DNA of 33,531 bases from Patescibacteria group bacterium. Its GTDB lineage: Bacteria > Patescibacteriota > Dojkabacteria > GCA-002793355. A program made the position numbers and the translations under genes. Below the pieces are notes generated by a model. It did no database searches, was not told the DNA's origin, and saw only the letters and a program-made list of their open reading frames with translations. This document shows positions 9,876 through 23,396 of this stretch, piece by piece. The stretch lies in the NCBI GenBank assembly GCA_016860985.1, contig BOKM01000001.1:284185-317715 (forward strand). The letters run 5' to 3'. How positions within the stretch are numbered: the stretch's first letter is position 1; each line of letters opens with the position of its first letter.

Positions 9876-11992
9876 AAAATTCCTGCTTTTCTAAGCGAAC
9901 CTCTGCCTTTTTTCAAAAAGTCTTCATATTCTTCTAGTGATTGCCTTCTAGAATGGTGTACGTCCGTGTATTTCGAATTGCTGGTTCCGCCCTCTTTTGG
10001 CATATACACTTTTTCGAGTTCAAGTGCCGTTGATTTACTCTGATTCGAGCTATTGATATTCTGTTTCAGTACATCACCAAACAGCTCGTGCATAAGCGAA
10101 TAACCGATACACGGGACGACAAGTGGTCTATTTTTATATTTTCTTTTTATAGCACCAAAAAGAGCTCGTGAAAGCTCTGCTCTGTCCATTCCTTCGAAGT
10201 TATCGTGCATTTCAGAGACAATGGGCACACCTCTCTGCAGAAGTGGATTCGCGCCAACTTGGGTTCGTATATCTTCTTGTATCCAGACAATATCGTATCC
10301 AAAGAGACCTAATGTCGGAACAACCCCCGCGTTTTCGTATAAGCGCCTAATCTTGTCACTAAATTCGAGCGCCCATTCGGTATCTCCAATAACGCGAGTG
10401 AGCGATTCATAATCCATTGTTTTGATAAATTCTTCGAATGCTGCCTTTTCTTCAGGAGTCAATTCAACAGTTCTCGATTGCTCTATATGAGCGTTCCCAA
10501 CCAATTCCTCAAGCCGACCGTTACGGTTTGGAATTACTCTATCTTGTGCCCAAAGAATACCCAGTTCTGGATGGAACCAAAATCGATTTTCCGTGTCTCC
10601 TAGTTTCAGTAAAGGCATTACAGCCCACTTTCCGTCCTTTGGCGGGGTGAATTCTAGCGGATTTACATTTCTGTCGATGATAATTCCTTGTTTTGTTGAA
10701 GTACCCGAACGGTGAGCAAATGTTCCGAATTGAGTATAGTCTAAGCCCAAGAATACGCCATCATTAATGACCTCCTCGTATGGGCTTCCATCTGGTCTAT
10801 TCACTACATATCTCAACAAAGGATAGGGCAATCCTGCGAATTTTGCTTCGAGAGCGGGGGTAACTTTACTTTCAAACTTCTGAATATAGGGGAGTGTCAT
10901 TCCAAGAAAATCGAGCCCATATGATTTCACTGCTTTAAGTACAGCGCCAAATTGTTCTGGAGTCACATTGATTGGGTGCCCCTCATCACCGAGTGATTGC
11001 ACCAGAACGCCAACAGACGTCAAAAGTTCTACCAGATTCCCTACAACAACTGAGTTTTTAGGAAGTCGTGCAGCTCTAAAGGCTTCATGGACTTCGTCTT
11101 GTATCTCTTGCTCGTGGCTACTGAGTATTTTTTGCTTTGCTCGTCGGTCATCTTTAACCAGGAATTCAGTACCTTCTTGGACGTCTGACGCTATGTCAAA
11201 AACTGACATTCCCAAAGTTTGCCCTAGTCTTGCCACATTTGACTTCATGGTATCAGCAGGTGAGACTTCATCCCATAAAGCAAGCTGCAACCCTCGCAAC
11301 GAGAAGTATTTCATGATATCTGCACCGCCTTTTTCGAACGTGTTTCGAATTCTTCCAATCGTCGAAATACCTGGAGTTACAATAGTCATCGCGCCATCAC
11401 GGCAAGCACACAAGAATGGACGTATTTCTTCATCTCCAATGTTTTTGTATAACTGAGTGAGAAAAAGATTAACAGACATATCATCAACAACAGCTCCTGG
11501 TGGCATTGATCTTCCTACAACAGCGCCTTCTTCACTCTCTTCAAATTCTTCTGGAATATTTTGAGGAAACCACAAGGGGGCTGCTGCTTCTGTTTGCAGT
11601 CCAACTGCCACTTTCCTGTTCTTTCGTTCGTGGTATATTTCTTTTACATTGCTTGGATATACACAGAAAATTGGCCCCATTCTTGTTTCTTCTTCTGTAA
11701 TAAGAGTGGTTACTTGCGCACCTAACCCAGGTTCCCTCCGTAGCATTACCTCTTCAAAATGCCCTCTTTCTGGGTTACCTCGTTTATACATATATCGAGC
11801 ATATACTGGCCCGCCTTTTTCATTCGCAATAGCTTGAAACGTTTCGACTTCAGGTAGAAATGCCTCTAAGACCTTGCGTTCAGAGTCCAACAATTTTTCT
11901 TTAAGATTTGTATGTCGTGTTACCGTCGTAGAACACTCGGCAAGTTTTTTTACCTCAATAGCTTTTTCAACAACTGCGATATCTCGTTGCAT
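9872..11992 (-). CDS. Large unknown soluble protein (706 aa)
   Basis: A 706-aa protein that I do not recognise. It has no signal peptide or membrane helix. The composition is that of an ordinary globular, mixed alpha/beta protein: charged helical N-terminus (1-60), a region with several aromatic/Gly loops (60-220), a helical stretch around 265-330 (including a DDRRAKQKILSSHEQEIQDE segment that could be a coiled coil), and a beta-rich half containing WFHPELGILWAQDR. The C-terminal 70 residues are Ser/Lys/Arg-rich and look disordered. No nucleotide-binding or metal motif stands out. It has its own -10 element and lies 50 bp downstream of the 159-aa unknown gene, so the two may also be co-transcribed. 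Confidence 0.85.
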   Translation of the reverse strand: MQRDIAVVEKAIEVKKLAECSTTVTRHTNLKEKLLDSERKVLEAFLPEVETFQAIANEKGGPVYARYMYKRGNPERGHFEEVMLRREPGLGAQVTTLITEEETRMGPIFCVYPSNVKEIYHERKNRKVAVGLQTEAAAPLWFPQNIPEEFEESEEGAVVGRSMPPGAVVDDMSVNLFLTQLYKNIGDEEIRPFLCACRDGAMTIVTPGISTIGRIRNTFEKGGADIMKYFSLRGLQLALWDEVSPADTMKSNVARLGQTLGMSVFDIASDVQEGTEFLVKDDRRAKQKILSSHEQEIQDEVHEAFRAARLPKNSVVVGNLVELLTSVGVLVQSLGDEGHPINVTPEQFGAVLKAVKSYGLDFLGMTLPYIQKFESKVTPALEAKFAGLPYPLLRYVVNRPDGSPYEEVINDGVFLGLDYTQFGTFAHRSGTSTKQGIIIDRNVNPLEFTPPKDGKWAVMPLLKLGDTENRFWFHPELGILWAQDRVIPNRNGRLEELVGNAHIEQSRTVELTPEEKAAFEEFIKTMDYESLTRVIGDTEWALEFSDKIRRLYENAGVVPTLGLFGYDIVWIQEDIRTQVGANPLLQRGVPIVSEMHDNFEGMDRAELSRALFGAIKRKYKNRPLVVPCIGYSLMHELFGDVLKQNINSSNQSKSTALELEKVYMPKEGGTSNSKYTDVHHSRRQSLEEYEDFLKKGRGSLRKAGIF

Positions 11993-11998
11993 ATATGT

Positions 11999-12004
11999 AT
12001 TATA
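11999..12004 (-). promoter_or_regulatory. -10 element for the 706-aa gene
   Basis: A perfect TATAAT on the minus strand ends 6 bases before the ATG at 11992. No convincing -35 is present. Its position predicts a leaderless transcript. Confidence 0.55.
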
Positions 12005-12042
12005 CCCTCATGTTACTTCTATTTCCTGACATAAATGTGACA

Positions 12043-12522
12043 TTACGCGGTCATTTTTAGTCGCAACGGTTTGTATGGCGCATGCTCGGCTTCTGTTCGC
12101 AACTCTCGCTTTTCGTCTTGCAAATGAATGCCAATATCTGCCAAAAGATCCAACCTTGCATGTATTTCTTCTTCCGGGAGTCGATAATATGGATACGGAT
12201 CGTCATCTCTGTATGCCCACTCTTTAATTTCGTACCCAAGCAACGAATTTTTTAACGTATCGAGCGGATATATTCGATGTTTCCATTCATCAATATGCTG
12301 GTGAATATGCTCCAGATATTCAGGGTATCGAGCAACAATATCCAAGAAATCATCTTCATCTCCGAATGTGCGTAAAAGCAACATCGCATCGAGCAAGTAA
12401 CGAATCGAACCATCTTTGCCTGAAAGCACACGACTGAATTCTTTTTCGAAATTTTCAATTTGTTCGGCGACTTCTCCTTCTATCATGATGGAATTGCCGC
12501 GGAGGTCCTTTAGTAATCTCAT
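12043..12522 (-). CDS. Unknown protein (159 aa)
   Basis: A soluble, acidic, largely helical protein of unknown function. The frame is open from a TTG at 12537, but ATG 12522 (MRLLKDLRGNSIMIEG) is the better start because the preceding residues fall in an A/T-rich leader. The segment LRGNSIMIEGEVAEQIENF resembles a short beta hairpin followed by a helix. Asp/Glu-rich stretches (FGDEDDFLDIV, YRDDDPYPYYRLPEEE) occur in the middle and C-terminal parts. Its upstream region contains an inverted repeat at 12539-12593. It precedes the 706-aa gene in the same direction, so a shared function is possible. Confidence 0.7.
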   Translation of the reverse strand: MRLLKDLRGNSIMIEGEVAEQIENFEKEFSRVLSGKDGSIRYLLDAMLLLRTFGDEDDFLDIVARYPEYLEHIHQHIDEWKHRIYPLDTLKNSLLGYEIKEWAYRDDDPYPYYRLPEEEIHARLDLLADIGIHLQDEKRELRTEAEHAPYKPLRLKMTA

Positions 12523-12538
12523 ATTTTTATGCTGCAAA

Positions 12539-12593
12539 CAGGAGGCAAGAAAGGTATAAAACGCTTGAACGAAACTCTCTTCCCTGCCTCCTG
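12539..12593. repeat. Inverted repeat with a 37-nt gap
   Basis: CAGGAGGCA (12539-12547) and TGCCTCCTG (12585-12593) are exact inverted copies. The pairing continues imperfectly inward (GAAAG-type bases against CTTTC-type). It lies just upstream of ATG 12522 on the minus strand. In that transcript the hairpin would hold an AGGAGG, the only strong Shine-Dalgarno-like sequence nearby, in its 5' arm. Function unknown; it may be a regulatory leader structure. Confidence 0.5.
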
Positions 12594-12594
12594 A

Positions 12595-12614
12595 ACGGCT
12601 CAGCCGTTTTTCTT
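12595..12614 (+). terminator. Short terminator-like hairpin on the plus strand
   Basis: A 5-bp stem ACGGC/GCCGT with a TCA loop (12595-12607) is followed by a plus-strand T-run (TTTTTCTT). No plus-strand gene ends here, so what it would terminate is unclear; the annotated genes on both sides are on the minus strand. Confidence 0.35.
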
Positions 12615-12631
12615 ACCCAGCATCATCCATT

Positions 12632-12802
12632 TTACTTCACATAGATTGTGATCGTTCCTTTCGGCATTTCATCTCCGTGACGGAGGACCTTATATCCAAC
12701 ACTTTTCAGCGTAACTGTGCTTCCAACTTGCGGAAGTTTGTTTCGCGGATATTTGCCGGACCCGACCTTTGTTCCGTCTTCGGTTTTGAATTTAACGTTC
12801 AT
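12632..12802 (-). CDS. Small unknown protein (56 aa) with a strong ribosome binding site
   Basis: A 56-aa reading frame from ATG 12802 (MNVKFKTEDG) to TAA 12632. A GGAGG lies 6 bases before the ATG, which is the only textbook Shine-Dalgarno at proper spacing that I found in this window. The protein is basic (several Lys/Arg), beta-rich and Gly-containing, ending TITIYVK. It has no membrane segment or Cys. It could be a small OB/SH3-like barrel or a nucleic-acid-binding protein, but this is only a guess from composition. A minus-strand TACACT (12822-12827) lies 19 bases before the start codon as a candidate -10. It diverges from the aminotransferase gene across a structured intergenic region. 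Confidence 0.65.
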   Translation of the reverse strand: MNVKFKTEDGTKVGSGKYPRNKLPQVGSTVTLKSVGYKVLRHGDEMPKGTITIYVK

Positions 12803-12827
12803 CTTGAGCCTCCATGTAAGTAGTGTA

Positions 12828-12998
12828 CCTAGACGTGGATTGGCATTGCTGCCCTAGGATTTGGGATGCCCACGCAAACATACGTCCAATACATGAACAT
12901 ATCTTTGCGTGGTTCCCTGGTGCTGCTGAGTGCCTGCGAGAATTGCTTCATCAACAGGCGAATGTCAAAGTACTTCATCCCGCGAGGGAGAAATACTT
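12828..12998 (+). ncRNA. Candidate structured RNA region (several stem-loops)
   Basis: Four possible stems follow one another: CCTAG (12828-12832) with CTAGG (12854-12858); CCACGCAAA (12870-12878) with TTTGCGTGG (12904-12912); GCCTG (12932-12936) with CAGGC (12955-12959); and a hairpin at 12968-12998 of about 13 bp with one bulge and one mismatch, closed by a GCGA tetraloop. I looked for hallmarks of tRNA, SRP RNA, tmRNA and RNase P RNA and found none. The strand is not certain, since perfect stems read on both. The region is otherwise non-coding between divergent genes. Confidence 0.3.
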
Positions 12999-13039
12999 CG
13001 TATTATAGGTCATTTTGCAATAATTGTGAATACCTCATA

Positions 13040-13068
13040 TTGCAGTCGTATTACCGAATTGATACAAT
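13040..13068 (+). promoter_or_regulatory. Promoter of the plus-strand aminotransferase gene
   Basis: TTGCAG (13040-13045), a 17-bp spacer and TACAAT (13063-13068). The -10 ends 4 bases before ATG 13073. This position decides the start codon: the longer frame from 12866 would place the promoter inside the coding region. Confidence 0.65.
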
Positions 13069-13072
13069 ACCT

Positions 13073-14230
13073 ATGCAATATTCCTCCGAATTGGTGGGCA
13101 GAATCGAAGCTTCTCCAACTAAAAAACTAAAACCAATAAAACAAGCACTGCTTGCACAACAAGTACAACTGATTGACTTTGCAGATGGAGAACCAGAACT
13201 TGGCATTTCGAACGAAACGCGAGAGGCAATTGCAAAAAGCCTAAAGGAGGGGCATTACAAGTACAGCGCAGCACAAGGATCACAACCGCTGCTGCGCACG
13301 ATTGCAGAAATTCGTCACGTTCCTATCGACAATATCGTTATTGGCTATGGCGTTAAGCACCTTTTTTACTCGTTACTGCAAACCTACTGCAACCCTGGGG
13401 ACGCAATACTGATGTTACAACCCAACTGGATGATTTATGCGCAACAAGCAAAAGCTCTTGGAATTAGCGTAACTAACTGCCCCGTACGCAACGGTTCATT
13501 TGATATCGACTTTGATTTATTAGAAAAGCTTCTGGCCGAAAACCCAAATATTCGACTTATCGTAACCAGTACCCCCAACAATCCAACAGGTAAGTGCTTA
13601 TCGCAAAAAGAAAAGCAACAACTGCTCGAAATCGCAAGCAAAAAAGAGCTGCTTCTTGTACTGGACGAAGTATTCAGAGACTTGTTACCAAGTGGTGGAA
13701 AACTAGAGAACACACCCTTTTCAGAAAACCTTATTTCAATAACATCTTCAAGTAAGAGCTACGGAATGACGGGTTTTCGAATTGGATACTTGCTCGGACC
13801 TGAGCCAGTGGTGAGCAATATCACGCAATACCTCTACCTTACAGTTACAAATGTGCCCGAATTCATTCAAGATGCTTATAAAAGTGAACTGCAAAACAGC
13901 GCTCGATTAGTGGAAAATGCAGCCCATATACGGCATAAACAAGAAGTCATGGAAAAGGCCATCGACGCATGTACCTTTATCTCCAATACCCCACACCAGG
14001 GCGGTATATGCATGTTTCCCAAGATTTCATATCCAAATGGTATAGATGAATGGCAACTTGCAGAAAAGCTAATGTCAGAAGCACATGTCGCGATTGTTCC
14101 TGGAATTGCCTTTTCGTACCCTGGGTATATACGACTTAATTACGCACACCTTTCTGACTCCGACATTACTGAAGGCATTCAACGTATCGAAACGTATTTG
14201 GTTAAATTGAATCAAAATATACGTGAATAA
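13073..14230 (+). CDS. PLP-dependent class I/II aminotransferase
   Basis: A 385-aa fold-type I aminotransferase of the aspartate aminotransferase type, transferring an amino group between an amino acid and a 2-oxo acid. Visible motifs: TSTPNNPTG (about 165-173) with the cofactor-binding Asn, LDEVF (D198; the usual Tyr is Phe), the PLP Lys K228 in SSSKSYGMTGFRIGY, and PGYIRLNY near the C-terminus with the carboxylate-binding Arg. The frame is open upstream to 12866, but a promoter immediately before ATG 13073 and the lack of any family similarity in the extension support the shorter protein. It is a distant paralogue of the aminotransferase at 17159-18313. The substrate is unknown. The next gene overlaps it by 8 bp. 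Confidence 0.93.
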   Translation: MQYSSELVGRIEASPTKKLKPIKQALLAQQVQLIDFADGEPELGISNETREAIAKSLKEGHYKYSAAQGSQPLLRTIAEIRHVPIDNIVIGYGVKHLFYSLLQTYCNPGDAILMLQPNWMIYAQQAKALGISVTNCPVRNGSFDIDFDLLEKLLAENPNIRLIVTSTPNNPTGKCLSQKEKQQLLEIASKKELLLVLDEVFRDLLPSGGKLENTPFSENLISITSSSKSYGMTGFRIGYLLGPEPVVSNITQYLYLTVTNVPEFIQDAYKSELQNSARLVENAAHIRHKQEVMEKAIDACTFISNTPHQGGICMFPKISYPNGIDEWQLAEKLMSEAHVAIVPGIAFSYPGYIRLNYAHLSDSDITEGIQRIETYLVKLNQNIRE

Positions 14231-14840
14231 GTTTTATGTATTGCTCGCAGGTGACAACGCTGGAAAGTCTACTGTACTCAACTACTTTTTAGAGAGACAA
14301 GATTGGCAAGTCGCATCCTACGATGCAGTTAATGTTCCAGAAGAATACCGTATTATTCGCGATATCGATGACTCGATGGAAACACACACGCTCAAATACT
14401 TTCCCCAATTTTCGACTGAATTTAAGTCCAGCCTTTACGCGCCGTACATCTACTATCTTCGAGATCAAGTTCAAGAAAAGCTAAAAACTGGCAATGTACT
14501 CTGTAACTCCTACTACTACAAAATACTCGCCAAAGATTTTCTTCAAGGGGGAGATAACCCTTCTTTTCACAACGAATGGAGAAAACTCCCCAAACCCGAC
14601 AGGATTCTTTTTCTTGATACTCCACCAGAAGTTGCTGCAAGCAGAATTGAAGATATCTTCTCTCTTTTTTCAAACGAATACGAAGGAGAAGTCCCTTCTG
14701 TCACGGGTTTTGTAAGTTTTCAGCACAAACTGAAAGAACGAATGCTCTACGAAACAAAAGACATTCCAACAGTCTTTCTGCCTGGAGATAAATCTGTTGC
14801 CGAGATTCTTACAGCGCTCGAACAAGCACTACAGGAGTAA
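14223..14840 (+). CDS. Thymidylate-kinase-like P-loop kinase
   Basis: A 205-aa protein starting at a GTG that overlaps the aminotransferase stop, so probably translationally coupled. Walker A is GDNAGKST (10-17). The strand ILFLDTPPEVAASRI matches the D-x-P-P-E-x-x-x-x-R pattern of thymidylate and related nucleoside monophosphate kinases. Where TMK has the D-R-Y/F substrate-binding motif, this protein has NSYYYKILAK, so the substrate is probably not dTMP. It may phosphorylate another small molecule in the pathway encoded nearby. It converges on the M20 peptidase gene with 28 bp between them. Confidence 0.8.
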   Translation: MNKFYVLLAGDNAGKSTVLNYFLERQDWQVASYDAVNVPEEYRIIRDIDDSMETHTLKYFPQFSTEFKSSLYAPYIYYLRDQVQEKLKTGNVLCNSYYYKILAKDFLQGGDNPSFHNEWRKLPKPDRILFLDTPPEVAASRIEDIFSLFSNEYEGEVPSVTGFVSFQHKLKERMLYETKDIPTVFLPGDKSVAEILTALEQALQE

Positions 14841-14868
14841 TACTTAAGTTTTTGACGTTACTTCTCGC

Positions 14869-16185
14869 TTACTCTCCAAGGAACGCTTCGCTGAAACGTA
14901 AACCTTTTTCGATAAGGTCAACTCTGTAGTTTTCTCCAACAGCGTGCATTCGACAATCTTCGTTTGCTAAAGGAAGCAAAACTTGTGGAATTTTAAAGAT
15001 GTCGTCAATCAAAGTAACGATCGGCAATCCACCTCCACAATACTTAAAGATTGGCTCTGTGCCGTATACTTCGGCAAGGATTCCTCGTGCCTTTTCGACG
15101 TACTCGCTGTTTGTGTTAAGCTTAATTCCATCGTATGGATCACTATATTCGACAGTCACATCGGCATACGAAGGTGCAAGTTGCTTCATGTATTCCGCAA
15201 ATTTTTTCGCAAGTTCCTCTGGATTCTGATTCTTTACAAGTCGGAAGTTGATTTTTGCTACTGCCTTAGAGGGTACACTGTTTCGGTAACCTTCCCCGAC
15301 ATACCCTGACTGCATGCCTGTAATGACAACCGCTGGGCGCAAACCGACTTGCGTATAAAAGTCATATCCATCAAGACTAGTCAGCTCTTTTGCCCCACTC
15401 AAATTCTTGTATTCCTCGAGTGTAAATGGAATTCGCTTGTTATTTTCGATATCTTCTGGCGCAATTTCAAGCACATCATCATAAAAACCTGGAATTGTTA
15501 CTTTTCCGTTTACAAAGAGTTTACCGAGCATTTCGGATAATACTAAGGATGCCATTGGAACTGCCCCACCAAACAAGCCAGAGTGTAAATCTGTTGTTGA
15601 CGTAACTACCGTTGTAGTTGAGTTAAACCCACCTCTGAAACCAGTTTCTAAGGTTGGGATACCTGCAGTAATTTCTCCATCAGAAATGAGTGCAAAATCC
15701 GACTTTAGGGTTTCGGCATAGTCGTGCATAAATTGCGTAATATGTGGTGAGCCCGTTTCTTCGTTCCCTTCGATCATAAACTTTACGTTGTACTTGAGCT
15801 TTCCTGCCTCAATAAGGTCGAAAACGGTTGCAGTATGAATCATAAACTGCCCTTTGTTATCAACCGCTCCACGTCCGTAGATTCGCCCTTCTTTTTCGGT
15901 AAGCCCGTACGGATCAGTCTCCCAGCCATCAGAAATATCTGCAGGTTGGATATCATAGTGACCATAAATAAGTACAGTTTTTGCTTCAGGAGAAACGACA
16001 TACGAGGCAATAATAATTGGATTGTCATACCCACGCGCGACTGTAACCGTAAAGCCATGTGTTTTATAAAGATTTTCTAGAAAAGAAACTATTTTTTCAA
16101 CTTCTGGCTGGTAAACCGCATCGGTTGAAATACTCTTATAAGCAACGGCTTCTTTTAATAGTCCGAGATATTTTTGATAGTTCAT
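14869..16185 (-). CDS. M20 family metallopeptidase (dipeptidase-like)
   Basis: A 438-aa di-zinc hydrolase of the M20 family (carnosinase/PepV/ArgE type). All expected ligands are visible: H76 and D78 in YGHYDIQPAD, D109 in GRGAVDNKGQ, catalytic/bridging E142-E143 in EGNEETGSP, D169 in ISDGEI, and H414 near the C-terminus. The dimerisation (lid) domain lies around 185-300. Such enzymes cut dipeptides or N-acyl amino acids. As the last gene of the minus-strand operon it may process a precursor or recycle a peptide; it could also be a plain housekeeping dipeptidase. A 29-bp gap separates it from the gene before it. No signal peptide, so cytoplasmic. Confidence 0.95.
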   Translation of the reverse strand: MNYQKYLGLLKEAVAYKSISTDAVYQPEVEKIVSFLENLYKTHGFTVTVARGYDNPIIIASYVVSPEAKTVLIYGHYDIQPADISDGWETDPYGLTEKEGRIYGRGAVDNKGQFMIHTATVFDLIEAGKLKYNVKFMIEGNEETGSPHITQFMHDYAETLKSDFALISDGEITAGIPTLETGFRGGFNSTTTVVTSTTDLHSGLFGGAVPMASLVLSEMLGKLFVNGKVTIPGFYDDVLEIAPEDIENNKRIPFTLEEYKNLSGAKELTSLDGYDFYTQVGLRPAVVITGMQSGYVGEGYRNSVPSKAVAKINFRLVKNQNPEELAKKFAEYMKQLAPSYADVTVEYSDPYDGIKLNTNSEYVEKARGILAEVYGTEPIFKYCGGGLPIVTLIDDIFKIPQVLLPLANEDCRMHAVGENYRVDLIEKGLRFSEAFLGE

Positions 16186-16214
16186 AAGTAGTGAATTAGA
16201 TAAAGTTAATTATT

Positions 16215-17150
16215 TTATATTAATTGTTCGAATATTTCACTTTTCCGTTGTTCTCTTAATAATGCTCCTCCTAGCTCTGCAAATTTTTTATTATTTGAGG
16301 GGATACCTTTTAGGTTAAACCCTTCTGCACGATGTAACAGCAGTAAGCCAATATATCGCATATAACGTGACTTATCCGATTCATCGAAAGCCAAGTCAAC
16401 AAAGCATTTTTCTGTAAAGTGGCCAATACGTTGATAAACTTCACTATTCTTTGAGGCTATTGCATACAAAAGCAAGTGTGATGCGAAATATGCAGGATCA
16501 TATACTCTATCTCCCCAAAATGCTTCTTCAAAATCGATAAGTTTAAAGGTATCTTCTGATGGAGAAACAAAGATGTTTTTAGGAGACAACCCACTGCAAT
16601 TTACAACTTTTCCACCTTTTTCGGCATCTTGAAAGAGTCTATCGATAGCATCTTTATATTGCGACGGCACAAATAATGAACGGAGCGCTTTTGTGGTTTG
16701 CTGGTTATAAAAGAAAGGTATCTTTTCACTTGCTTCTTTCGATTTTTCTCCTTTTTGCACAAGAAAACTGACAAAAGCTTCCATAAACCTAACAGTCGGG
16801 ACATATCCTGATAATAGTAAATCATCAAAAATGACATGTGATCCACCTACTCGATCTAGTGCCAAAATTCCTTGAGTTGAGTCATAACCATACACTTTTG
16901 GCACATAGCTTTTATCAATACTCTCTAAGAAGGCATACATAGAAGCCTCCGTTTGAACCCTTTTCATAGGATATAGAGGCAAAGAGGGATATGGCTGAAA
17001 CTCCTTGTTAACCTTTACGACTACTTCTTGTGCATGATTATTTTTAAGTAAGCATACGTAAGCACCGTATCCTAGCACCTTTTCGATTTCCATGGCACGA
17101 AAGCCCAACTTTGCTGCGTACGTTTTTGCTTGTTGTGTATACATTTCCAT
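16215..17150 (-). CDS. APH/choline-kinase-fold protein lacking the catalytic Asp
   Basis: A 311-aa protein with the aminoglycoside/choline phosphotransferase fold. The N-lobe has a Gly-rich strand (LGYGAYVCLL) and the ATP-contacting Lys in EVVVKVNKE (about K46). The C-lobe metal-binding segment is intact: LIDFEEAFWGDRVYDPA (D206). The catalytic loop, normally H-G-D-L-x-x-x-N, reads C185-S-G187-L-S-P-K-N192, so the His and the catalytic Asp are replaced while the Asn is kept. I infer a pseudokinase or an enzyme with altered chemistry. It lies 8 bp downstream of the aminotransferase and is co-transcribed with the rest of the operon. Confidence 0.88.
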   Translation of the reverse strand: MEMYTQQAKTYAAKLGFRAMEIEKVLGYGAYVCLLKNNHAQEVVVKVNKEFQPYPSLPLYPMKRVQTEASMYAFLESIDKSYVPKVYGYDSTQGILALDRVGGSHVIFDDLLLSGYVPTVRFMEAFVSFLVQKGEKSKEASEKIPFFYNQQTTKALRSLFVPSQYKDAIDRLFQDAEKGGKVVNCSGLSPKNIFVSPSEDTFKLIDFEEAFWGDRVYDPAYFASHLLLYAIASKNSEVYQRIGHFTEKCFVDLAFDESDKSRYMRYIGLLLLHRAEGFNLKGIPSNNKKFAELGGALLREQRKSEIFEQLI

Positions 17151-17158
17151 CTTGCGTG

Positions 17159-18313
17159 TTATTGAGTTATCAATTTTTTTGTTTCTTCAACCAACAATTT
17201 CATACCTTCTTGAATCTCAGAAAGTGTACTGTTACCGACTGAAATTCGTACATATCCAGGCATACCAAAAGCACTTCCTGGTAACATTGCAATTCCCTTT
17301 GTTTTAAGCATGTGTAAACAGTATTCTGAATCAGAAAGCCGCATAACTGGTAACTTTGGAAAGAGGTAGATTGTCGCCTTCTCTTGAGCAAGCTCAAAAA
17401 GATTAGCCTTTTTTAAGGCAGCATATGCCTCGTTATATCGTTGCTCTAGTTCTGCTTTGTAATCCGATTGAAAAGTCTTGTGACGTACCACATCAACCCA
17501 GATTTTCTGAGCGTAAACGGGCACATTTGAAATTGTCTGTGAGTTAACGGAGATACACTGTTTTACAAACGTTTTGTTTGCGACAATATATCCCAAGCGA
17601 AAACCAGACATGCCGTGCGACTTGCTTGGTGAACCAACAATGTAAAGAGATTCGACTTGCGCATCACTCACGAGTGAACGCATAGAAACGAATTCATTCC
17701 CAGAAAATACTAAATCACCATACACTTCGTCTGCAATGACGAGCATTCCGTATTCTTTTGCTATCTTTAGTATTTGCTGTAATTCTTCTCTAGAATATGT
17801 ATACCCGCTTGGGTTATTAGGATTATTGATAAGAATTGCACGTGGTTTTTGTAAGGTTTCAATATATTCACGTAATTTCTCAGGGTTAATCTGCGGTGAT
17901 TCACTTTCAAACACACGGCAGTTTGCACCCACAACTTCAATTTGTGATTTGTAAGTCGACCAATACGGAGCAACTACAACAACATCGTCACCCTCGTTAA
18001 AGAGCATGAGTGCTAATGTGAAAAGTGCCTGCTTCGCACCTGCAGAAATAACGATTTCTTCGGTTGTCACTGAATACTTAACTGCGAGGTACGACAGAAT
18101 ACCTGAATCGCCTTGAGAAGAACCGTATTTGTACCACCCAGCTTTTTCAAAGTAGCGTGGCATCTGCGAAACAATATCACTGGGGAGCGCAATGTTTACA
18201 TCACCGTGATCGAACTTATAGACTTTCTTGCCCTGAGCTTCCAGCTCCTGAATCAAAGGTTTAAATTGTTTAGTTTCGGAGGGCCTTATTTTTTCCATCC
18301 TTTGCGCAAACAT
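17159..18313 (-). CDS. PLP-dependent class I/II aminotransferase
   Basis: A 384-aa fold-type I aminotransferase of the aspartate aminotransferase type. Motifs: AGAKQALF, LINNPNNPSG (161-170), ADEVYGD (D195, Y198), the PLP Lys K231 in SPSKSHGMSGFRLGY, and PGYVRISVG near the C-terminus. An alternative start is Met6 (MEKIRPSETKQF). In this operon it could aminate the product of the PEP-mutase-like enzyme, a 2-oxo acid. It shares the general family and a similar size with the plus-strand aminotransferase at 13073, but differs in the DEVY/DEVF position and in residues around the active site. It lies 11 bp after the upstream gene. Confidence 0.94.
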   Translation of the reverse strand: MFAQRMEKIRPSETKQFKPLIQELEAQGKKVYKFDHGDVNIALPSDIVSQMPRYFEKAGWYKYGSSQGDSGILSYLAVKYSVTTEEIVISAGAKQALFTLALMLFNEGDDVVVVAPYWSTYKSQIEVVGANCRVFESESPQINPEKLREYIETLQKPRAILINNPNNPSGYTYSREELQQILKIAKEYGMLVIADEVYGDLVFSGNEFVSMRSLVSDAQVESLYIVGSPSKSHGMSGFRLGYIVANKTFVKQCISVNSQTISNVPVYAQKIWVDVVRHKTFQSDYKAELEQRYNEAYAALKKANLFELAQEKATIYLFPKLPVMRLSDSEYCLHMLKTKGIAMLPGSAFGMPGYVRISVGNSTLSEIQEGMKLLVEETKKLITQ

Positions 18314-18324
18314 GCCACACTCAA

Positions 18325-19026
18325 TTAATTAATATAACCATAAAGTAAAAACTCTCTTCCGTACGTTTCTTCTACGTCGACTCTGCAATACGTTTCGTGG
18401 TGTATCTCTTCTGCAGTTTCTTCTGAGGGAACCGCCCGCAAAACGAGTGATACCGAGTCGTCTAAACCGATTTTTCCCGTAATATATCCCTCAGATACCA
18501 CATGAGAGGCATGGACCAATACTCGGGAAAAAGGCAGCCCGTAATGAAAGACAGTCACTTTCTTTGTGGTACCCGACGTACCTGCAAGGACATACTGTTC
18601 AGACTCAACAGGCAATTGCAGATTTGGATTCCAAACCGTTAAGAGTGAGCGAATCCCTTGCATTACCTTGCCATCACCTAGTGTCGTCATTGACAGATGT
18701 TTTCCCCCAAACTGAAGCTTTTTATCGTAGATCTTTCTCACTTTCTCTGGGTTTCCATTCAAAAAATACATCCGAGTAAAGGCAGAAAACCACTTACGAA
18801 GTGTCTCGCTTGCTTGAGAAGAAATCATCTCCCTGAGCGTATGGAGATATTCACTCCAAGAGAAAGTTTCGATTACAGTGATTCCGTAGAACATAGGAAT
18901 CGAATCTAGATTTTTGTTAACCCAGATTCCATCTTTTTGTTCGAAGAAGTAGTCAAATCCCTCGTTGTACCCTTTTTTCTTGATTGCTGCATCAAAATGC
19001 GCAATCCGTTCGTTTTGTGAGTTCAT
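18325..19026 (-). CDS. Unknown protein of the biosynthetic operon
   Basis: A 233-aa protein of unknown function. I place the start at ATG 19026 because it forms a 4-bp ATGA overlap with the stop of the methyltransferase gene; the longer frame back to 19119 runs inside that gene. The N-terminal half is helical and aromatic-rich (FDYFFEQKDGIWV, WSEYLHTL). The C-terminal half is beta-rich (EQYVLAGTSGTTKKVTVFHY, VSLVLRAVPSEE). No catalytic motif is recognised and no signal peptide is present. Its tight coupling in the middle of the operon argues that it takes part in the same pathway. Confidence 0.8.
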   Translation of the reverse strand: MNSQNERIAHFDAAIKKKGYNEGFDYFFEQKDGIWVNKNLDSIPMFYGITVIETFSWSEYLHTLREMISSQASETLRKWFSAFTRMYFLNGNPEKVRKIYDKKLQFGGKHLSMTTLGDGKVMQGIRSLLTVWNPNLQLPVESEQYVLAGTSGTTKKVTVFHYGLPFSRVLVHASHVVSEGYITGKIGLDDSVSLVLRAVPSEETAEEIHHETYCRVDVEETYGREFLLYGYIN

Positions 19027-19739
19027 TTTCTTGCAATGATATAACCATATGTAAGCCACGGTGCAGTAAATTTCGATTCTAATACCGTTAAGCCCGCATC
19101 CTTGATGAAGTTCTCCCACATCTGTTTAGTCGCCATATATTCGCCTTGCTTCTTGATAATCTTTTGGCAAAAATCTACCTCTCTCCAAAACTGTGAAATC
19201 CCTACATTTACAAGGCCGTTCAATGCTTTTCGCGCGTAGATACTCATAATTGATAACGGGTGAGCCTGGCTCTCAAACATTGTCTCTCCGAGCACAAACA
19301 AGCCGCCCTTTTTTATACCGTTTGCAATTTTTTTGACCATTTGTCCTTTTTCTTCATGGACTATGTGGTGCAAACTAAACGATGCCATAATCACGTCGTA
19401 AGATTCTGGCTCGATTTCGAGTTCTTCAAAATTTGCTTTAACTGTGGTGAGTTTTTCCGATGGTTTACCCGCATCTTTCCACCTCTTTTCTACCGCCTGT
19501 AACATTTCCTGAGAGACGTCCACTGCTACGATATCTGGTGACGAAAAAACTTCATCAGCAAACATAGCAAGAATCCCCGTTCCTGTGCCTAAGTCCATAA
19601 CTCTCTTCACGTTGTTCTCATGAACGACTGCCGCCGTTCGTGCAAACATCTCCTCTACCATTTTTTGGTATTGTGGTACTTTATTTAAAAAGTACTCTTT
19701 TGCCCATTCGTCAAAGAATTTTTCTTGAACGTAATCCAT
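19023..19739 (-). CDS. SAM-dependent class I methyltransferase
   Basis: A 238-aa Rossmann-fold methyltransferase. Motif I is MDLGTGTGIL (48-57). The acidic residue that binds the SAM ribose is D74 in VAVDVS. Motif IV is DVIMASFSLHHI (115-126). The long N-terminal helix and the C-terminal region with several aromatic residues would form the substrate pocket. The substrate cannot be read from the sequence. It sits 3 bp after the synthetase-like gene and overlaps the next gene by 4 bp, so it is firmly part of the operon. Confidence 0.92.
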   Translation of the reverse strand: MDYVQEKFFDEWAKEYFLNKVPQYQKMVEEMFARTAAVVHENNVKRVMDLGTGTGILAMFADEVFSSPDIVAVDVSQEMLQAVEKRWKDAGKPSEKLTTVKANFEELEIEPESYDVIMASFSLHHIVHEEKGQMVKKIANGIKKGGLFVLGETMFESQAHPLSIMSIYARKALNGLVNVGISQFWREVDFCQKIIKKQGEYMATKQMWENFIKDAGLTVLESKFTAPWLTYGYIIARK

Positions 19740-19742
19740 AAG

Positions 19743-20840
19743 TTATAAAAATAAGTTATATAAAAGCGACTGTTGTTCTGTCACATCAAACATTCGGTTT
19801 TTCATTATCATCTGTGCAACCCACGGTGGAGATACAAACGTACCATCAAATTTTTTATGTGGAAAAGGAATTTCCGCATTTAAGGCTTCGCGTCTCCACC
19901 CCACACGATTTAATACAAAACGTGCTTTTTGAGTGTATTTTTCAAGATCACGATACTCAAAACTTTTCGGAATAAAACCCAGGTAGTAAAACCGGAGTCC
20001 AAGCGAAATTTCATCTTGGGTGTACCCTTTATCTTGAAGGAACGCTAATACTCTTCCAAGTGAATATTTTTCCCATCCGCCATGTCGGCTTGAAAGTGCT
20101 TTACCCTCCAATAAAATCCTGTTAGTCTGAATTTTGTACACTTTATGTCCCAATTTTTCTAAGACACGTTGGAGAATAAAGAAGTCTCCAAGTAGCTCAT
20201 CATCAAACACAAATACAAATACATCACCATTTTTTCGAAGCGCAAGTAACTCACGAAGCATAGTTCCGAGATAGTTATAATCCGAGAGTACCGAAGAGCA
20301 CAAATGCCGTAATTTAATCCCTTCGTCAGTAAGGTCTATATAAACATTTTCTCCCTGCTTCCGTGAATCAAGAACCATCGATATTTCTTTTAGCTTTTCG
20401 ATTACCTCTTCTAGAGAAATGTCGAAAGGTACCGCCTGCGTCAACCCAGGATTATACATACGAAGGAAGCTGTGCTGTTCCACCCATTCAGGAAGAATCG
20501 CCCTGTAATACGAGTTACCAGACAAGCTTTCTTCTCGTTCTTTACGCATCTCGGTAATTTTTCCCTGCGATAATGCATAGCCCTCATTGGTCATCTGCAC
20601 GTAGGCACCTCCGACTTCTTCTGCATTAGTGACAGAGAGTTGTTTTGACTCAATGTATTGCTCGAGCTTTAGTACTTGCGGCGTGACATCCATCCGTAGC
20701 CTATTGTATGGATAAACAACATCTGCTCCCTTTGCTTTTAAGCCGCGGTAAAGGCAGTCCACATACAACAAGTGCCGAACGTGCGTTGGCGTTAACGGCT
20801 TAGTTGGAGCGATGTGAATTGGATAAATAACGTATCTCAT
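19743..20840 (-). CDS. Stand-alone class I aminoacyl-tRNA synthetase-like protein
   Basis: A 365-aa protein with features of the HUP-fold class I synthetases. The N-terminus, IHIAPTKPLTPTHVRHLLYV, has an H-x-x-H (H20, H23) where HIGH is expected, and the following helix and G-A-D-V strand fit Cys/Glu-type enzymes. Residues 247-254 are KALSSRHG, like the KMSKS/KLSKRHG loop, followed by a helical bundle (LRFYYLGFIPKSFEYRDLEK) as in CysRS. No anticodon-binding domain follows, and the middle (60-200) does not resemble a normal synthetase. I infer an adenylate-forming ligase or carrier-loading enzyme of the pathway, comparable to MshC in mycothiol synthesis. It overlaps the PEP-mutase-like gene by 4 bp. 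Family assignment is from motif inspection only. Confidence 0.7.
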   Translation of the reverse strand: MRYVIYPIHIAPTKPLTPTHVRHLLYVDCLYRGLKAKGADVVYPYNRLRMDVTPQVLKLEQYIESKQLSVTNAEEVGGAYVQMTNEGYALSQGKITEMRKEREESLSGNSYYRAILPEWVEQHSFLRMYNPGLTQAVPFDISLEEVIEKLKEISMVLDSRKQGENVYIDLTDEGIKLRHLCSSVLSDYNYLGTMLRELLALRKNGDVFVFVFDDELLGDFFILQRVLEKLGHKVYKIQTNRILLEGKALSSRHGGWEKYSLGRVLAFLQDKGYTQDEISLGLRFYYLGFIPKSFEYRDLEKYTQKARFVLNRVGWRREALNAEIPFPHKKFDGTFVSPPWVAQMIMKNRMFDVTEQQSLLYNLFL

Positions 20841-21655
20841 GCCGACATTGCCTCGAGCTCTTTAACCTTATCTTCGCCTGTGATTGCAAGAATTTCGGAA
20901 ATCGGTGCAATTTCTTTTTCAATTGGAGCACTTGTTCCTGCTTCGAGAATCCTTGGTAACGTTGTTTCCAGCGCTCTTTTAATTGTTCTGACGGTATGAT
21001 TGGCATAGATGACCAGATCGTAGCCATTTGACTCAAGCTCTGCCCTTGTAACTTGCGGGTATTTTGAAGGTACGGAAACCAACTTCGTTTTTCCCTTCCA
21101 GAGTTTTGAAAATTCAAAAATTTCGTCTGGAGTGGACTGTTTGGAGTGTGGCATTACATAATCTGCACCCGCATCAGCATAAATAGTTGCCCTGCGAAGT
21201 GCCTCTTCTACCCCCATTCCCTGAATCAAGGCCTCCGTTCTTGCTACCACAAATTCATCTGGACCATTAAAAATTCTCTTTGCCATAACAATCTTTCGTG
21301 CAAACGCTTGTGCCTCTTCGAGCAAACGAGTTCCTTCGTAAAAACTGTTTTGTTTTGGAAAGATATTGTCTTCGATACAGACTGCTTTTACACCAGCTTT
21401 TTTCAGTTCTTGAAAGTAATAAAATACATTGACCTCGTTACCGTATCCAGAATCACAGTCCATAAGAACCGGAACCGAGCTGTTTTCAACCATTTCTTTC
21501 GCCACGCGTAGAACCGAATCGAACGATACGATAGACGCGTCTGGTAAACAATATGCTGTTGAAATTTCTAGAGAAGATCCCCATACCAAATCGAACCCCA
21601 AGCTCGATACGATCTTTGCGGTAAAGGCATTGTGCGCTGCTATTGCTGTTTTCAT
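20837..21655 (-). CDS. PEP mutase / isocitrate lyase superfamily enzyme
   Basis: A 272-aa TIM-barrel enzyme close to phosphoenolpyruvate mutase and phosphonopyruvate hydrolase. Matching segments: WGSSLEIS (25-32; the usual SG is SS), the metal-binding DCDSGYGN (D66, D68), the gating-loop region EDNIFPKQNSF (95-105), VARTEAL, and IYANHTVR near the C-terminus. The PEP-mutase signature is EDK-x5-NS; here the Lys is Asn97, while Asn103-Ser104 are kept. PEP mutase makes phosphonopyruvate, the entry to nearly all phosphonates; the hydrolase splits it to pyruvate and phosphate. The K-to-N change leaves the exact reaction open. First structural gene of the operon; the next gene overlaps it by 4 bp. 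Confidence 0.9.
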   Translation of the reverse strand: MKTAIAAHNAFTAKIVSSLGFDLVWGSSLEISTAYCLPDASIVSFDSVLRVAKEMVENSSVPVLMDCDSGYGNEVNVFYYFQELKKAGVKAVCIEDNIFPKQNSFYEGTRLLEEAQAFARKIVMAKRIFNGPDEFVVARTEALIQGMGVEEALRRATIYADAGADYVMPHSKQSTPDEIFEFSKLWKGKTKLVSVPSKYPQVTRAELESNGYDLVIYANHTVRTIKRALETTLPRILEAGTSAPIEKEIAPISEILAITGEDKVKELEAMSA

Positions 21656-21660
21656 TTTTT

Positions 21661-21666
21661 GTTGTA
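21661..21666 (-). promoter_or_regulatory. Possible -10 element of the biosynthetic operon
   Basis: TACAAC on the minus strand ends 5 bases before ATG 21655, the same arrangement as at other gene starts here. It follows the terminator at 21676-21699, and no good -35 is present because the terminator occupies that place. If this is not a promoter, operon expression would depend on read-through from the small gene upstream. Confidence 0.4.
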
Positions 21667-21675
21667 TTAAATAAA

Positions 21676-21699
21676 AAAACCTCCCTTGCGGGAGGTTTT
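21676..21699 (-). terminator. Strong bidirectional rho-independent terminator
   Basis: A perfect 10-bp stem AAAACCTCCC/GGGAGGTTTT with a 4-nt loop (TTGC on the plus strand). The minus strand continues with three more T's. It lies between the 52-aa gene and the PEP-mutase-like gene, 20 bp before the latter's ATG, so it can act as an end for the small transcript or as an attenuator for the operon. Confidence 0.85.
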
Positions 21700-21723
21700 A
21701 ACTTTCTTTTAATTAGAGTTAAT

Positions 21724-21882
21724 CTACCCCCCGGCTATTGCAGTAAAAAGGACAAAGAGTGCAATAGAAAGATAACGCTTTGCCCAATGCATACAGGAGG
21801 TAAGTGAAGCAACTTGTAACGCCAACAAAGCAGACGACTGCTCTAGAACAGAGGGCTGAGTTGTTGTTGCAACTGCTAACAT
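21724..21882 (-). CDS. 52-aa protein with C-terminal membrane helix, own promoter and terminator
   Basis: A 52-aa reading frame from ATG 21882 (MLAVATTTQP) to TAG 21724. The first 30 residues are small, polar and Ser/Thr/Ala-rich; WAKR (33-36) precedes a hydrophobic segment YLSIALFVLFTAIAGG that ends the protein, which fits a tail-anchored or single-span small membrane protein. It contains one Cys (C30). A near-consensus promoter lies directly upstream and a strong terminator follows 25 bp after the stop, so it forms a complete transcription unit. I do not recognise a family. It could be a stand-alone small protein or a leader peptide for the operon that follows. Confidence 0.6.
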   Translation of the reverse strand: MLAVATTTQPSVLEQSSALLALQVASLTSCMHWAKRYLSIALFVLFTAIAGG

Positions 21883-21891
21883 GATAAACGA

Positions 21892-21920
21892 ATTGTATAG
21901 AGAAAAAAACGAAGTGTCAA
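21892..21920 (-). promoter_or_regulatory. Near-consensus promoter of the 52-aa gene
   Basis: On the minus strand: TTGACA (21915-21920), a 17-bp spacer, and TACAAT (21892-21897). The -10 ends 9 bases before ATG 21882, so the mRNA would begin about 3 nt before the start codon. It is the closest match to a sigma-70 promoter in the window. Confidence 0.8.
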
Positions 21921-21942
21921 GCTCGACTAATACGCCCTACCC

Positions 21943-22680
21943 TTAATTCCAAGAAAAATCCCATCGAACGGGTATTTTATTCATAACCTTTTCTTTCCGT
22001 GCATACGAAGAAAACACATCTCGCCTTTCGAGTTTCGACAAAACAAAGGCGTACATAAAGAGTGCCTCCTTTGAAACATGCTGTAGCATTGAGGGGCTAA
22101 CCAAGCGGTTAGCATCTCCTTGGTATATGCGCGAGAGTGCTGCCATAACCGCGTTTAGTAAATAATCTTGCTGGGCTTCATTACACACATATTTCCTTGC
22201 TGACTTCCGTACGTCGTCTAGAATTCCATCGTTGGCACACTCGTTTAGCACCTCATACTCTGCTGTTCGTTCAATAACATGCTGTGCAGGTTTTCTAGAT
22301 GCGAACGTTTTTACTAAGTCGCGAGAGGCAACATTCACTTTGTAAATCAACGGAATTGAGTAGTCTTTAATAAATTCCTTCCAACTATTTGGGCTGAATT
22401 GTTGTAATTGGTTTTTGGTAAACTCTAGATAATAGCCAAAACGTTCTAGCTCATGCTCGAATATACCACTTCGTCTAGATTCATGAGGAAAAAGATATGA
22501 AAATCCTATAATTGCTCTTAGTTTTCTATCTGCAATGCTGAGTGTTTTCGCACTGAGATCGGCAGCTGTATCACGTTCTCGCTTAGCAGAAAAAAGCGAC
22601 CCTACCTCTTGATAAATTTCTGCGGCACCAAAGCCATCTAGATGTTTTTCTGCTTTAGCTGGAGCGACATTAAGTCCCAT
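21943..22680 (-). CDS. Unknown helical protein (245 aa)
   Basis: A soluble, helix-rich protein of unknown function. The frame is open to 22746, but I choose ATG 22680 (MGLNVAPAKAEKHL) because a TATAAT ends 4 bases before it and the extension would overlap that promoter. Notable are an Arg/Lys/Glu-rich helix around SAKRERDTAADLSAK and a C-terminal part rich in aromatic and basic residues (RWDFSWN end). No nucleotide-binding motif or membrane helix is visible. It lies downstream of the XRE regulator in the same direction and upstream of the 52-aa gene. Confidence 0.75.
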   Translation of the reverse strand: MGLNVAPAKAEKHLDGFGAAEIYQEVGSLFSAKRERDTAADLSAKTLSIADRKLRAIIGFSYLFPHESRRSGIFEHELERFGYYLEFTKNQLQQFSPNSWKEFIKDYSIPLIYKVNVASRDLVKTFASRKPAQHVIERTAEYEVLNECANDGILDDVRKSARKYVCNEAQQDYLLNAVMAALSRIYQGDANRLVSPSMLQHVSKEALFMYAFVLSKLERRDVFSSYARKEKVMNKIPVRWDFSWN

Positions 22681-22684
22681 AGTT

Positions 22685-22713
22685 ATTATACACTTCAATT
22701 TACTCCTCTTCAA
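22685..22713 (-). promoter_or_regulatory. Promoter of the 245-aa gene
   Basis: On the minus strand: TTGAAG (22708-22713), a 17-bp spacer and a perfect TATAAT (22685-22690), which ends 4 bases before ATG 22680. This predicts a leaderless transcript and supports the shorter start. Confidence 0.7.
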
Positions 22714-22772
22714 GTTTGTGGTGAATACGGTAAAACCATATGCCACAAGCTATGTACCGTCCCAGCACTCTC

Positions 22773-23396
22773 TTAAAACTTTACAACCCACTCCACTACT
22801 TTTGCGAGAACGTTTGCTTTTAACTCTGGCATATACTGCGTAACTTGAACCAGATTATTCACAACAGTTAGTACAAGTGAATGCTCATCTAGTTCGTCTG
22901 TAACCAACGTACAAACAAGTATGCCCCGAGGCAATAACACCCCTGCAGCGATTCTAATTTTAGAGTCAGGTCCAAGTTTGATTGCAAATTTTTCAACCGC
23001 GGTTCCGTCATCGTATAGATACATCCCTTGCTCTAGTTGAGATAACATTCGAACGAGTTCAGCTTTTGAGGCAGGTATTGTCGAAATAATTGGTAAGAAG
23101 ATTGATTGCAACCGCTCTGAACTTGAATCGCGAAAGTTTGAAAATATTGGAGCTGCACCAAAAAACGTTCCCATTGGAACTTCGAGTGCAAAGGCAAGTT
23201 CTTGCAATTTGTTCAGCGCAGAAGACTTACCTCGCTCATATCTGCTAATCATCTCCCACGTGACGCCTACTTTTCGAGCAAGCTCTACTTGAGATAAATT
23301 CTTTTTTTGTCTTTGATCTCGAATTATTTCTCCAATCTCTTTGTCAGTCATGCCCCACTTTACGAAACCATCTTTCTTCTCGCTATGAATTGGCAT
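22773..23396 (-). CDS. XRE-family transcriptional regulator
   Basis: A 207-aa DNA-binding protein. Residues about 20-75 are a Cro/CI-type helix-turn-helix: IGEIIRDQRQKKNLSQVELA, then WEMISRYERGKS, with the usual hydrophobic spacing. The C-terminal part (about 85-207) is a separate domain. Its segment FAIKLGPDSKIRIAAGVLLP, a later VNNLVQVTQY, and ANVLAKVVEW recall the beta-rich S24/LexA-like fold of CI-type repressors, but no convincing Ser-Lys catalytic pair can be assigned. Target unknown; the downstream gene at 22680 and the cluster behind it are candidates. An alternative start is Met16 (MTDKEIGEII). Confidence 0.9.
   Translation of the reverse strand: MPIHSEKKDGFVKWGMTDKEIGEIIRDQRQKKNLSQVELARKVGVTWEMISRYERGKSSALNKLQELAFALEVPMGTFFGAAPIFSNFRDSSSERLQSIFLPIISTIPASKAELVRMLSQLEQGMYLYDDGTAVEKFAIKLGPDSKIRIAAGVLLPRGILVCTLVTDELDEHSLVLTVVNNLVQVTQYMPELKANVLAKVVEWVVKF

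What the first reader, a model, noticed from the sequence alone, without database searches (positions are those of the whole stretch)
14869..21655. Seven-gene operon that looks like an undescribed biosynthetic cluster
The genes from 21655 to 14869 are on one strand with 4-bp overlaps or gaps of at most 29 bp. They encode a PEP-mutase-superfamily enzyme, a stand-alone class I synthetase-like protein, a methyltransferase, an unknown protein, an aminotransferase, a kinase-fold protein and an M20 peptidase. Seen: motifs and spacing. Known: PEP mutase opens phosphonate pathways, and an aminotransferase can convert phosphonopyruvate to phosphonoalanine. Inferred: a pathway of carbon skeleton formation, amination, adenylation and methylation. 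Such a cluster would be unusual in a reduced genome.
Basis: partly seen in the sequence, partly recalled or inferred. Interest (0 to 1): 0.9.

Follow-up and report, generated by a model that had tools for sequence, protein, structure and literature searches.

The report
Island operon with ArgRS-derived enzyme
A tiny-genome bacterium carries, at one variable spot in its chromosome, an imported gene set that probably builds an unusual amino-acid-like compound; it includes a cut-down relative of arginyl-tRNA synthetase that this search otherwise found only in uncharacterised gene clusters of Streptomyces-type bacteria.

Summary
In detail: seven genes lie head to tail at 21655-14869 (-). Relatives show the locus is a genomic island: in one family member the flanking genes vanY and HTH touch, and the PEP-mutase and synthetase are absent from all sampled relatives. 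The synthetase-like protein has an ArgRS fold without the N-terminal domain, with HIGH changed to TPTH and the arginine-binding Asp lost, so it is probably not an ArgRS. It and the 'unknown' gene (DUF6182) occur together in 26 of 27 actinomycete loci, mostly beside GH3, an HMG-CoA-reductase/phosphotransferase fusion and a P-loop kinase. The first enzyme is PEP-mutase-like with catalytic residues kept, but reads EDN-X5-NS instead of the marker EDK-X5-NS; two other Patescibacteria enzymes beside decarboxylase-like genes share that change. An aspartate-aminotransferase-type enzyme fits the known phosphonoalanine branch. Most likely product (inferred): a methylated, carboxyl-activated phosphonoalanine-like amino acid or peptide. 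M20 also occurs at this site in a same-genus genome, so it is a weaker pathway member; the kinase-fold protein lacks its catalytic Asp. Biosynthetic reading partly supported; product unproven.

The parts
20837..21655 (-). PEP-mutase-like enzyme (P0001, 272 aa)
   Evidence: PF13714 160 bits; D58, D85, D87, E114, K120, N122, S123, R159, H190 (Mytilus numbering) kept, K116 to N; nearest solved: phosphonopyruvate hydrolase and PEP mutase
19743..20840 (-). Stand-alone ArgRS-derived ligase-like protein (P0002, 365 aa)
   Evidence: AlphaFold pLDDT 86.8; the 14 best PDB fold matches are all ArgRS, best E 2.8e-9; 26 actinomycete relatives
19023..19739 (-). SAM-dependent class I methyltransferase (P0003)
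   Evidence: PF13649 64 bits; DLGTGTG motif seen in the sequence
18325..19026 (-). DUF6182 protein (P0004), start at internal ATG
   Evidence: PF19680 54.3 bits, cut-off 25; profile of the actinomycete copies hits at 44 bits; fold not resolved
17159..18313 (-). Aspartate-aminotransferase-type PLP enzyme AT1 (P0005)
   Evidence: PF00155; best solved relative is an aspartate aminotransferase, E 1e-47
16215..17150 (-). APH/kinase-fold protein without the catalytic Asp (P0006)
   Evidence: PF01636 22.5 bits, just under cut-off 23.2; HGDFSPKN of a relative reads CSGLSPKN here
14869..16185 (-). M20 dipeptidase-like enzyme (P0007); pathway membership less sure
   Evidence: PF01546, carnosinase-type; 39% identical homologue at the same site in G002
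13073..14230 (+). Second aminotransferase AT2, convergent (the listed ORF starts at 12866)
   Evidence: PF00155; 28% identical to AT1; start re-set by inspection
14223..14840 (+). P-loop thymidylate-kinase-like protein
   Evidence: PF02223 23.9 bits, cut-off 27; only a weak match to the actinomycete TMPK profile
21892..21920 (-). Promoter-like site TTGACA-17-TACAAT
   Evidence: 11 of 12 consensus positions
21724..21882 (-). 52-aa leader ORF, nearly leaderless from that promoter
   Evidence: coding status unproven
21676..21699 (-). 10-bp terminator hairpin about 20 nt before the first gene; possible attenuator
   Evidence: read-through is inferred
9872..22772 (.). Island between vanY (8448-9875) and the HTH gene (22773-23396), absent in G001
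   Evidence: vanY and HTH homologues are convergent and overlapping in G001 (L089)

Best explanation
This is a laterally acquired small-molecule biosynthetic operon in a variable chromosomal locus. Proposed mechanism: (1) the PEP-mutase-like enzyme converts PEP to phosphonopyruvate [family-level inference]; (2) AT1, perhaps also AT2, transaminates it to phosphonoalanine or a close C3 amino acid, pulling the unfavourable first step [by analogy with PnaD/PnaA]; (3) the ArgRS-derived enzyme, which keeps the Lys before HIGH and the second His of HIGH but not the N-terminal tRNA-binding domain or the arginine-binding Asp, adenylates the carboxyl group and passes it to a small-molecule or peptide amine, with DUF6182 as partner or acyl-transfer subunit [inference from fold, residues and linkage]; (4) the methyltransferase caps the product; (5) the M20 enzyme trims or remodels the amide or peptide. 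Shown here: gene content, linkage, island status, the ArgRS-type fold, the conserved partnership with DUF6182. Not shown: any chemistry.
For: Tight operon. PEP-mutase catalytic residues kept, including N122 of mutases rather than Thr of the hydrolases; tree places it outside the hydrolase clade, which has support 100/99. The K116N change is shared with Patescibacteria enzymes G340 and G428, which lie beside a split TPP-decarboxylase pair and an aldehyde dehydrogenase (Pfam run on G340 only). AT1 is of aspartate-aminotransferase type, as is PnaA. Synthetase-like protein: ArgRS fold, invariant PTKP Lys and His20, no KMSKS Lys, YxxxD Asp replaced by I/V/M/A in all 27 rows. DUF6182 beside it in 26 of 27 actinomycete loci. 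Each found in 1 of 380 genomes of the phylum, together. Empty site in G001.
Against: Strict PepM marker EDKX5NS not met, and the NCBIfam equivalog cut-off not reached (249.9 against 319.55 bits). No ATP-grasp ligase, decarboxylase or exporter recognised in the window. No actinomycete locus carries the PEP-mutase together with the synthetase, so the two are linked only here. M20 may belong to the older locus.
Confidence: 0.48

Rival explanations
1. [quoted passage not shown]
For: EDK to EDN, deep long branch (1.73 changes per column), equivalog cut-offs missed. The actinomycete users of the synthetase + DUF6182 pair have HMG-CoA reductase instead of PEP mutase.
Against: Nearest families are PEP mutase and phosphonopyruvate hydrolase by a wide margin; H190 and N122 are kept, whereas the carboxyphosphoenolpyruvate mutase outgroup has Glu and Cys there.
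Confidence: 0.2
2. Several unrelated cargo genes gathered in a variable locus: no single pathway, with M20, aminotransferases and kinases serving peptide and amino-acid scavenging.
For: The same site in G002 holds a different set: aminotransferase, NUDIX, methyltransferase, M20. The APH and TMPK genes are not clear orthologues of the actinomycete ones.
Against: Overlapping or nearly abutting genes over the whole seven-gene run; synthetase and DUF6182 are co-inherited across phyla.
Confidence: 0.2
3. A phosphonoalanine catabolic operon: aminotransferase plus phosphonopyruvate hydrolase, releasing phosphate.
For: Aminotransferase next to a hydrolase-type gene in Tistrella, Pseudosulfitobacter and S. 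alkalisoli; best solved match is a hydrolase.
Against: Asn, not Thr, at the discriminating position, and placed outside the hydrolase clade; no uptake system recognised in the window; synthetase, methyltransferase and DUF6182 have no place in it.
Confidence: 0.07

Closest known systems
Phosphonoalamide biosynthesis (pna genes; PnaD PepM + PnaA aminotransferase), PMC11867202
   Same: PEP-mutase-type enzyme with an aspartate-aminotransferase-type enzyme and no decarboxylase in the window
   Different: Peptide bonds there are made by ATP-grasp ligases; here none was recognised and an ArgRS-derived protein is present. The PepM motif is EDN instead of EDK
Actinomycete cluster synthetase-DUF6182-GH3-HMGR/APH-TMPK (L003-L029; no published description found)
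   Same: Homologous ArgRS-derived protein (24-33% identity) and DUF6182, in a short operon
   Different: HMG-CoA reductase and GH3 there; PEP mutase, aminotransferases, methyltransferase and M20 here; kinases only similar at superfamily level
Patescibacteria PEP-mutase operons G340 and G428 (L068, L069)
   Same: Closest PEP-mutases (44% and 39%), same K116N change, an M20-type peptidase nearby (Pfam on G340)
   Different: They have a split TPP-decarboxylase pair, aldehyde dehydrogenase and carbamoyltransferase-like genes; no hit to the window's synthetase, DUF6182 or aminotransferases
MshC and other stand-alone class I synthetase-fold ligases
   Same: Class I synthetase-fold ligase working outside translation; MshC is among the fold hits
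   Different: MshC is CysRS-like; this one is closest to ArgRS and has no intact HIGH motif

Membership tests
PepM (phosphonate marker enzyme) | Superfamily membership and catalytic residues | tested here: met
   PF13714 160 bits; residues kept
PepM (phosphonate marker enzyme) | Perfect EDKX5NS motif | tested here: not met
   EDNIFPKQNS; criterion from PMC12723261
PepM (phosphonate marker enzyme) | TIGR02320 equivalog score of at least 319.55 | tested here: not met
   249.9 bits
PepM (phosphonate marker enzyme) | Forms phosphonopyruvate from PEP | not testable with these tools
   needs an enzyme assay
Phosphonopyruvate hydrolase | TIGR02321 score of at least 374.4, Thr at the 122 position, inside the hydrolase clade | tested here: not met
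   211.2 bits; Asn and outside the clade
Arginyl-tRNA synthetase | Class I ArgRS catalytic fold | tested here: met
   Foldseek top 14 are ArgRS
Arginyl-tRNA synthetase | HIGH motif, Arg-binding Asp, N-terminal tRNA-binding domain | tested here: not met
   TPTH; I/V/M/A in place of Asp; alignment starts at ArgRS column 122 of 582
Arginyl-tRNA synthetase | Charges tRNA-Arg | not testable with these tools
   needs an assay
DUF6182 (PF19680) | Score over the gathering cut-off | tested here: met
   54.3 against 25 bits
Phosphonoalamide-type pathway | PepM-type enzyme plus AAT-type aminotransferase | tested here: inconclusive
   Both types present, but the PepM motif is imperfect and AT1 was not compared with PnaA itself
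Phosphonoalamide-type pathway | ATP-grasp peptide ligases | tested here: not met
   none among Pfam hits of the window genes
Actinomycete synthetase-DUF6182-GH3-HMGR/APH-TMPK cluster | Synthetase and DUF6182 | tested here: met
Actinomycete synthetase-DUF6182-GH3-HMGR/APH-TMPK cluster | GH3 and HMG-CoA reductase | tested here: not met
   no such Pfam hit in the window
Actinomycete synthetase-DUF6182-GH3-HMGR/APH-TMPK cluster | Orthologous APH and TMPK | tested here: inconclusive
   profile match 9 bits for TMPK, none for APH

The most novel reading that the evidence does not exclude
The ArgRS-derived enzyme plus DUF6182 is a portable, tRNA-independent carboxyl-activating module not described so far, serving an HMG-CoA-reductase/GH3 pathway in actinomycetes and a phosphonoalanine-type pathway in a Patescibacterium: a way of making phosphonate amides or peptides without ATP-grasp ligases, in a reduced-genome, probably host-dependent bacterium.
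Probability: 0.33. Interest if true: 0.82.

Novelty: new variant of a known kind. Interest (0 to 1): 0.62.

Why it matters
If right, an ArgRS-derived enzyme family with DUF6182 as partner activates amino or hydroxy acids in uncharacterised clusters of Streptomyces, Actinoplanes, Actinomadura and relatives, and a Patescibacterium with a 1.06-Mb genome has taken it up with a PEP-mutase. That would give DUF6182 and the ArgRS-like family a testable function, and show that bacteria with reduced genomes can carry a specialised-metabolite pathway in a swappable locus, perhaps used against or towards their hosts.

Tried and rejected
Single-sequence scan of genome contigs with the synthetase: no relative; a two-sequence alignment then found 26. 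Viral contigs: none. DUF6182 fold: pLDDT 55, no match, so no fold is claimed. Idea that the genome lacks a normal ArgRS and uses this protein instead: dropped, because the fetched end of the main contig and the small contigs show runs of N, withheld sequence. Idea that all four of synthetase, DUF6182, APH and TMPK are one orthologous module: weakened, only the first two hold up. Anti-phage defence reading: only the methyltransferase matched, to part of one PADLOC model. Riboswitch in the leader: no Rfam hit. Mobile-element signs at the island ends: no tRNA, no recognised integrase, no flanking repeat. Literature on the actinomycete cluster: none found in the library searched.

Full report
OBSERVATION. 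The seven genes are present as described, on the minus strand from 21655 to 14869. Distances are -4, 3, -4, 11, 8 and 29 bp. The fourth gene must start at the internal ATG at 19026. Two further genes, an aminotransferase (ORF 12866-14230, likely start 13073 by inspection) and a thymidylate-kinase-like gene (14223-14840), overlap by 8 bp and converge on the operon, so the cluster may have nine genes.

FAMILIES. Pfam and NCBIfam: PEP_mutase; nothing for the synthetase-like protein; class I methyltransferase; DUF6182; aminotransferase I/II; a match just under the APH cut-off; M20 dipeptidase.

THE SYNTHETASE-LIKE PROTEIN. One plasmid of Streptomyces sp. NBC_01435 encodes a 30% identical protein. 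The alignment of the two found 26 further loci, all in actinomycetes (Streptomyces, Kitasatospora, Actinoplanes and Paractinoplanes, Actinomadura, Saccharothrix, Mangrovihabitans). The family profile matches ArgRS weakly by sequence (E 0.013); the AlphaFold model (pLDDT 86.8, pTM 0.85) matches ArgRS strongly by fold, with the 14 best PDB matches all ArgRS, best E 2.8e-9. The HMM-HMM alignment is collinear from ArgRS column 122 of 582 to 530, so the N-terminal domain is absent and the C-terminal part shortened (this alignment alone has a probability of only 12%, so the fold match carries the weight). In all 27 rows the first His of HIGH is Thr or Leu, the second His and the PTKP Lys are invariant, the KMSKS Lys is absent (SSRxGGW), and the Asp of the arginine-binding YxxxD is replaced by I, V, M or A. 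From memory of ArgRS structures, a Lys just before HIGH compensates for a missing KMSKS Lys in some ArgRSs; the invariant Lys14 sits there. The protein therefore looks like an ATP-using ligase that does not recognise arginine; this is inference.

PARTNERSHIP. In 26 of 27 actinomycete loci DUF6182 lies with the synthetase, often with overlapping stop and start codons; GH3 is present in 26, the HMG-CoA-reductase/APH fusion and the TMPK-like kinase in 25. Saccharothrix (L004) has synthetase + DUF6182 + GH3 without HMG-CoA reductase, so the synthetase + DUF6182 pair is the portable part. In the phylum of the window each of the two occurs in 1 of 380 sampled genomes, the same one. The window's APH and TMPK genes are not clear orthologues of the actinomycete kinases, and the APH-like protein reads CSGLSPKN where relatives have H-x-D-x-x-x-x-N, so its catalytic Asp is gone.

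THE PEP-MUTASE-LIKE ENZYME. It keeps the metal- and substrate-binding residues known from the Mytilus enzyme, with Asn122 of mutases rather than Thr of phosphonopyruvate hydrolases. It breaks the strict genome-mining marker EDKX5NS (PMC12723261) by one residue. Two other Patescibacteria enzymes (G340, G428) share that same change and sit beside a split TPP-decarboxylase pair and an aldehyde dehydrogenase, so this change does occur in phosphonate-type operons; in those two, however, Asn122 is Cys. In a tree of 21 sequences the window enzyme is deep and long-branched and outside the hydrolase clade (100/99), with its exact place unsure. AT1 is of aspartate-aminotransferase type, the type that PnaA uses to turn phosphonopyruvate into phosphonoalanine (PMC11867202).

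ISLAND. In G001, of the same family, the homologues of vanY (window 8448-9875) and HTH (22773-23396) are convergent and overlap slightly, so about 12.9 kb is extra in the window genome. In G002, of the same genus, the site holds an M20 homologue (39%), a methyltransferase, a NUDIX gene and, on another contig after HTH, an aminotransferase, without the synthetase or the PEP-mutase. The locus therefore swaps gene sets. M20 is in part a feature of the locus, although M20-type genes also lie near PEP-mutases in Priestia and G340. Base composition of the cluster matches the flanks.

CONTROL REGION. A near-consensus promoter (21920-21892) stands about 10 nt before a 52-aa ORF (21882-21724), followed by a strong terminator hairpin (21699-21676) about 20 nt before the first gene. 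That gap is too short for another promoter, so read-through or attenuation is inferred. No Rfam family matches.

MECHANISM AND VERDICT. The best reading is PEP to phosphonopyruvate to phosphonoalanine or a close C3 amino acid, activated by the ArgRS-derived enzyme with DUF6182, methylated, and possibly trimmed by M20. Gene content, linkage, island status and fold are shown; all chemistry is inferred. Absence statements refer to one genome per species and to a sample of the phylum; parts of the held genome are masked, so absence of other genes from it, including a normal ArgRS, cannot be concluded.

Noticed in passing
L068:8503-14495 and L069:8247-14276 (G340, G428): Operons in two other Patescibacteria: PEP-mutase with the EDN motif, split TPP-decarboxylase pair, aldehyde dehydrogenase, unknown protein, carbamoyltransferase-like gene, HAD; in L068 an M20-type gene and a TauD dioxygenase lie alongside. 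Possibly a phosphonoacetyl-type product.
   Followed up: partly
L003-L029: Conserved uncharacterised actinomycete cluster: ArgRS-like protein, DUF6182, GH3, HMG-CoA-reductase/APH fusion, TMPK-like kinase; no paper found in the library.
   Followed up: partly
L004:5827-11829: Saccharothrix variant with the ArgRS-like protein, DUF6182 and GH3 but no HMG-CoA reductase; methyltransferases and an M20 gene nearby, so the pair serves more than one context.
   Followed up: partly
L056:137-8825: Priestia megaterium plasmid operon with ornithine carbamoyltransferase, two ATP-grasp proteins, split TPP enzyme, M20 and a PEP-mutase (EDKX5NS intact).
   Followed up: no
window 9872-11992: 706-aa protein in the island with no Pfam, PHROGs, PADLOC or plasmid match.
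   Followed up: partly
L090:1-2607 and L091:7241-10235 (G002): Same genomic site in a same-genus genome holds a different set (aminotransferase; NUDIX, methyltransferase, M20), split by a contig end.
   Followed up: partly
L071:1922-3681 (G260): A carboxyphosphoenolpyruvate-mutase/methylisocitrate-lyase-like enzyme overlapping a gene that looks like a branched-chain-type aminotransferase in another Patescibacterium.
   Followed up: no
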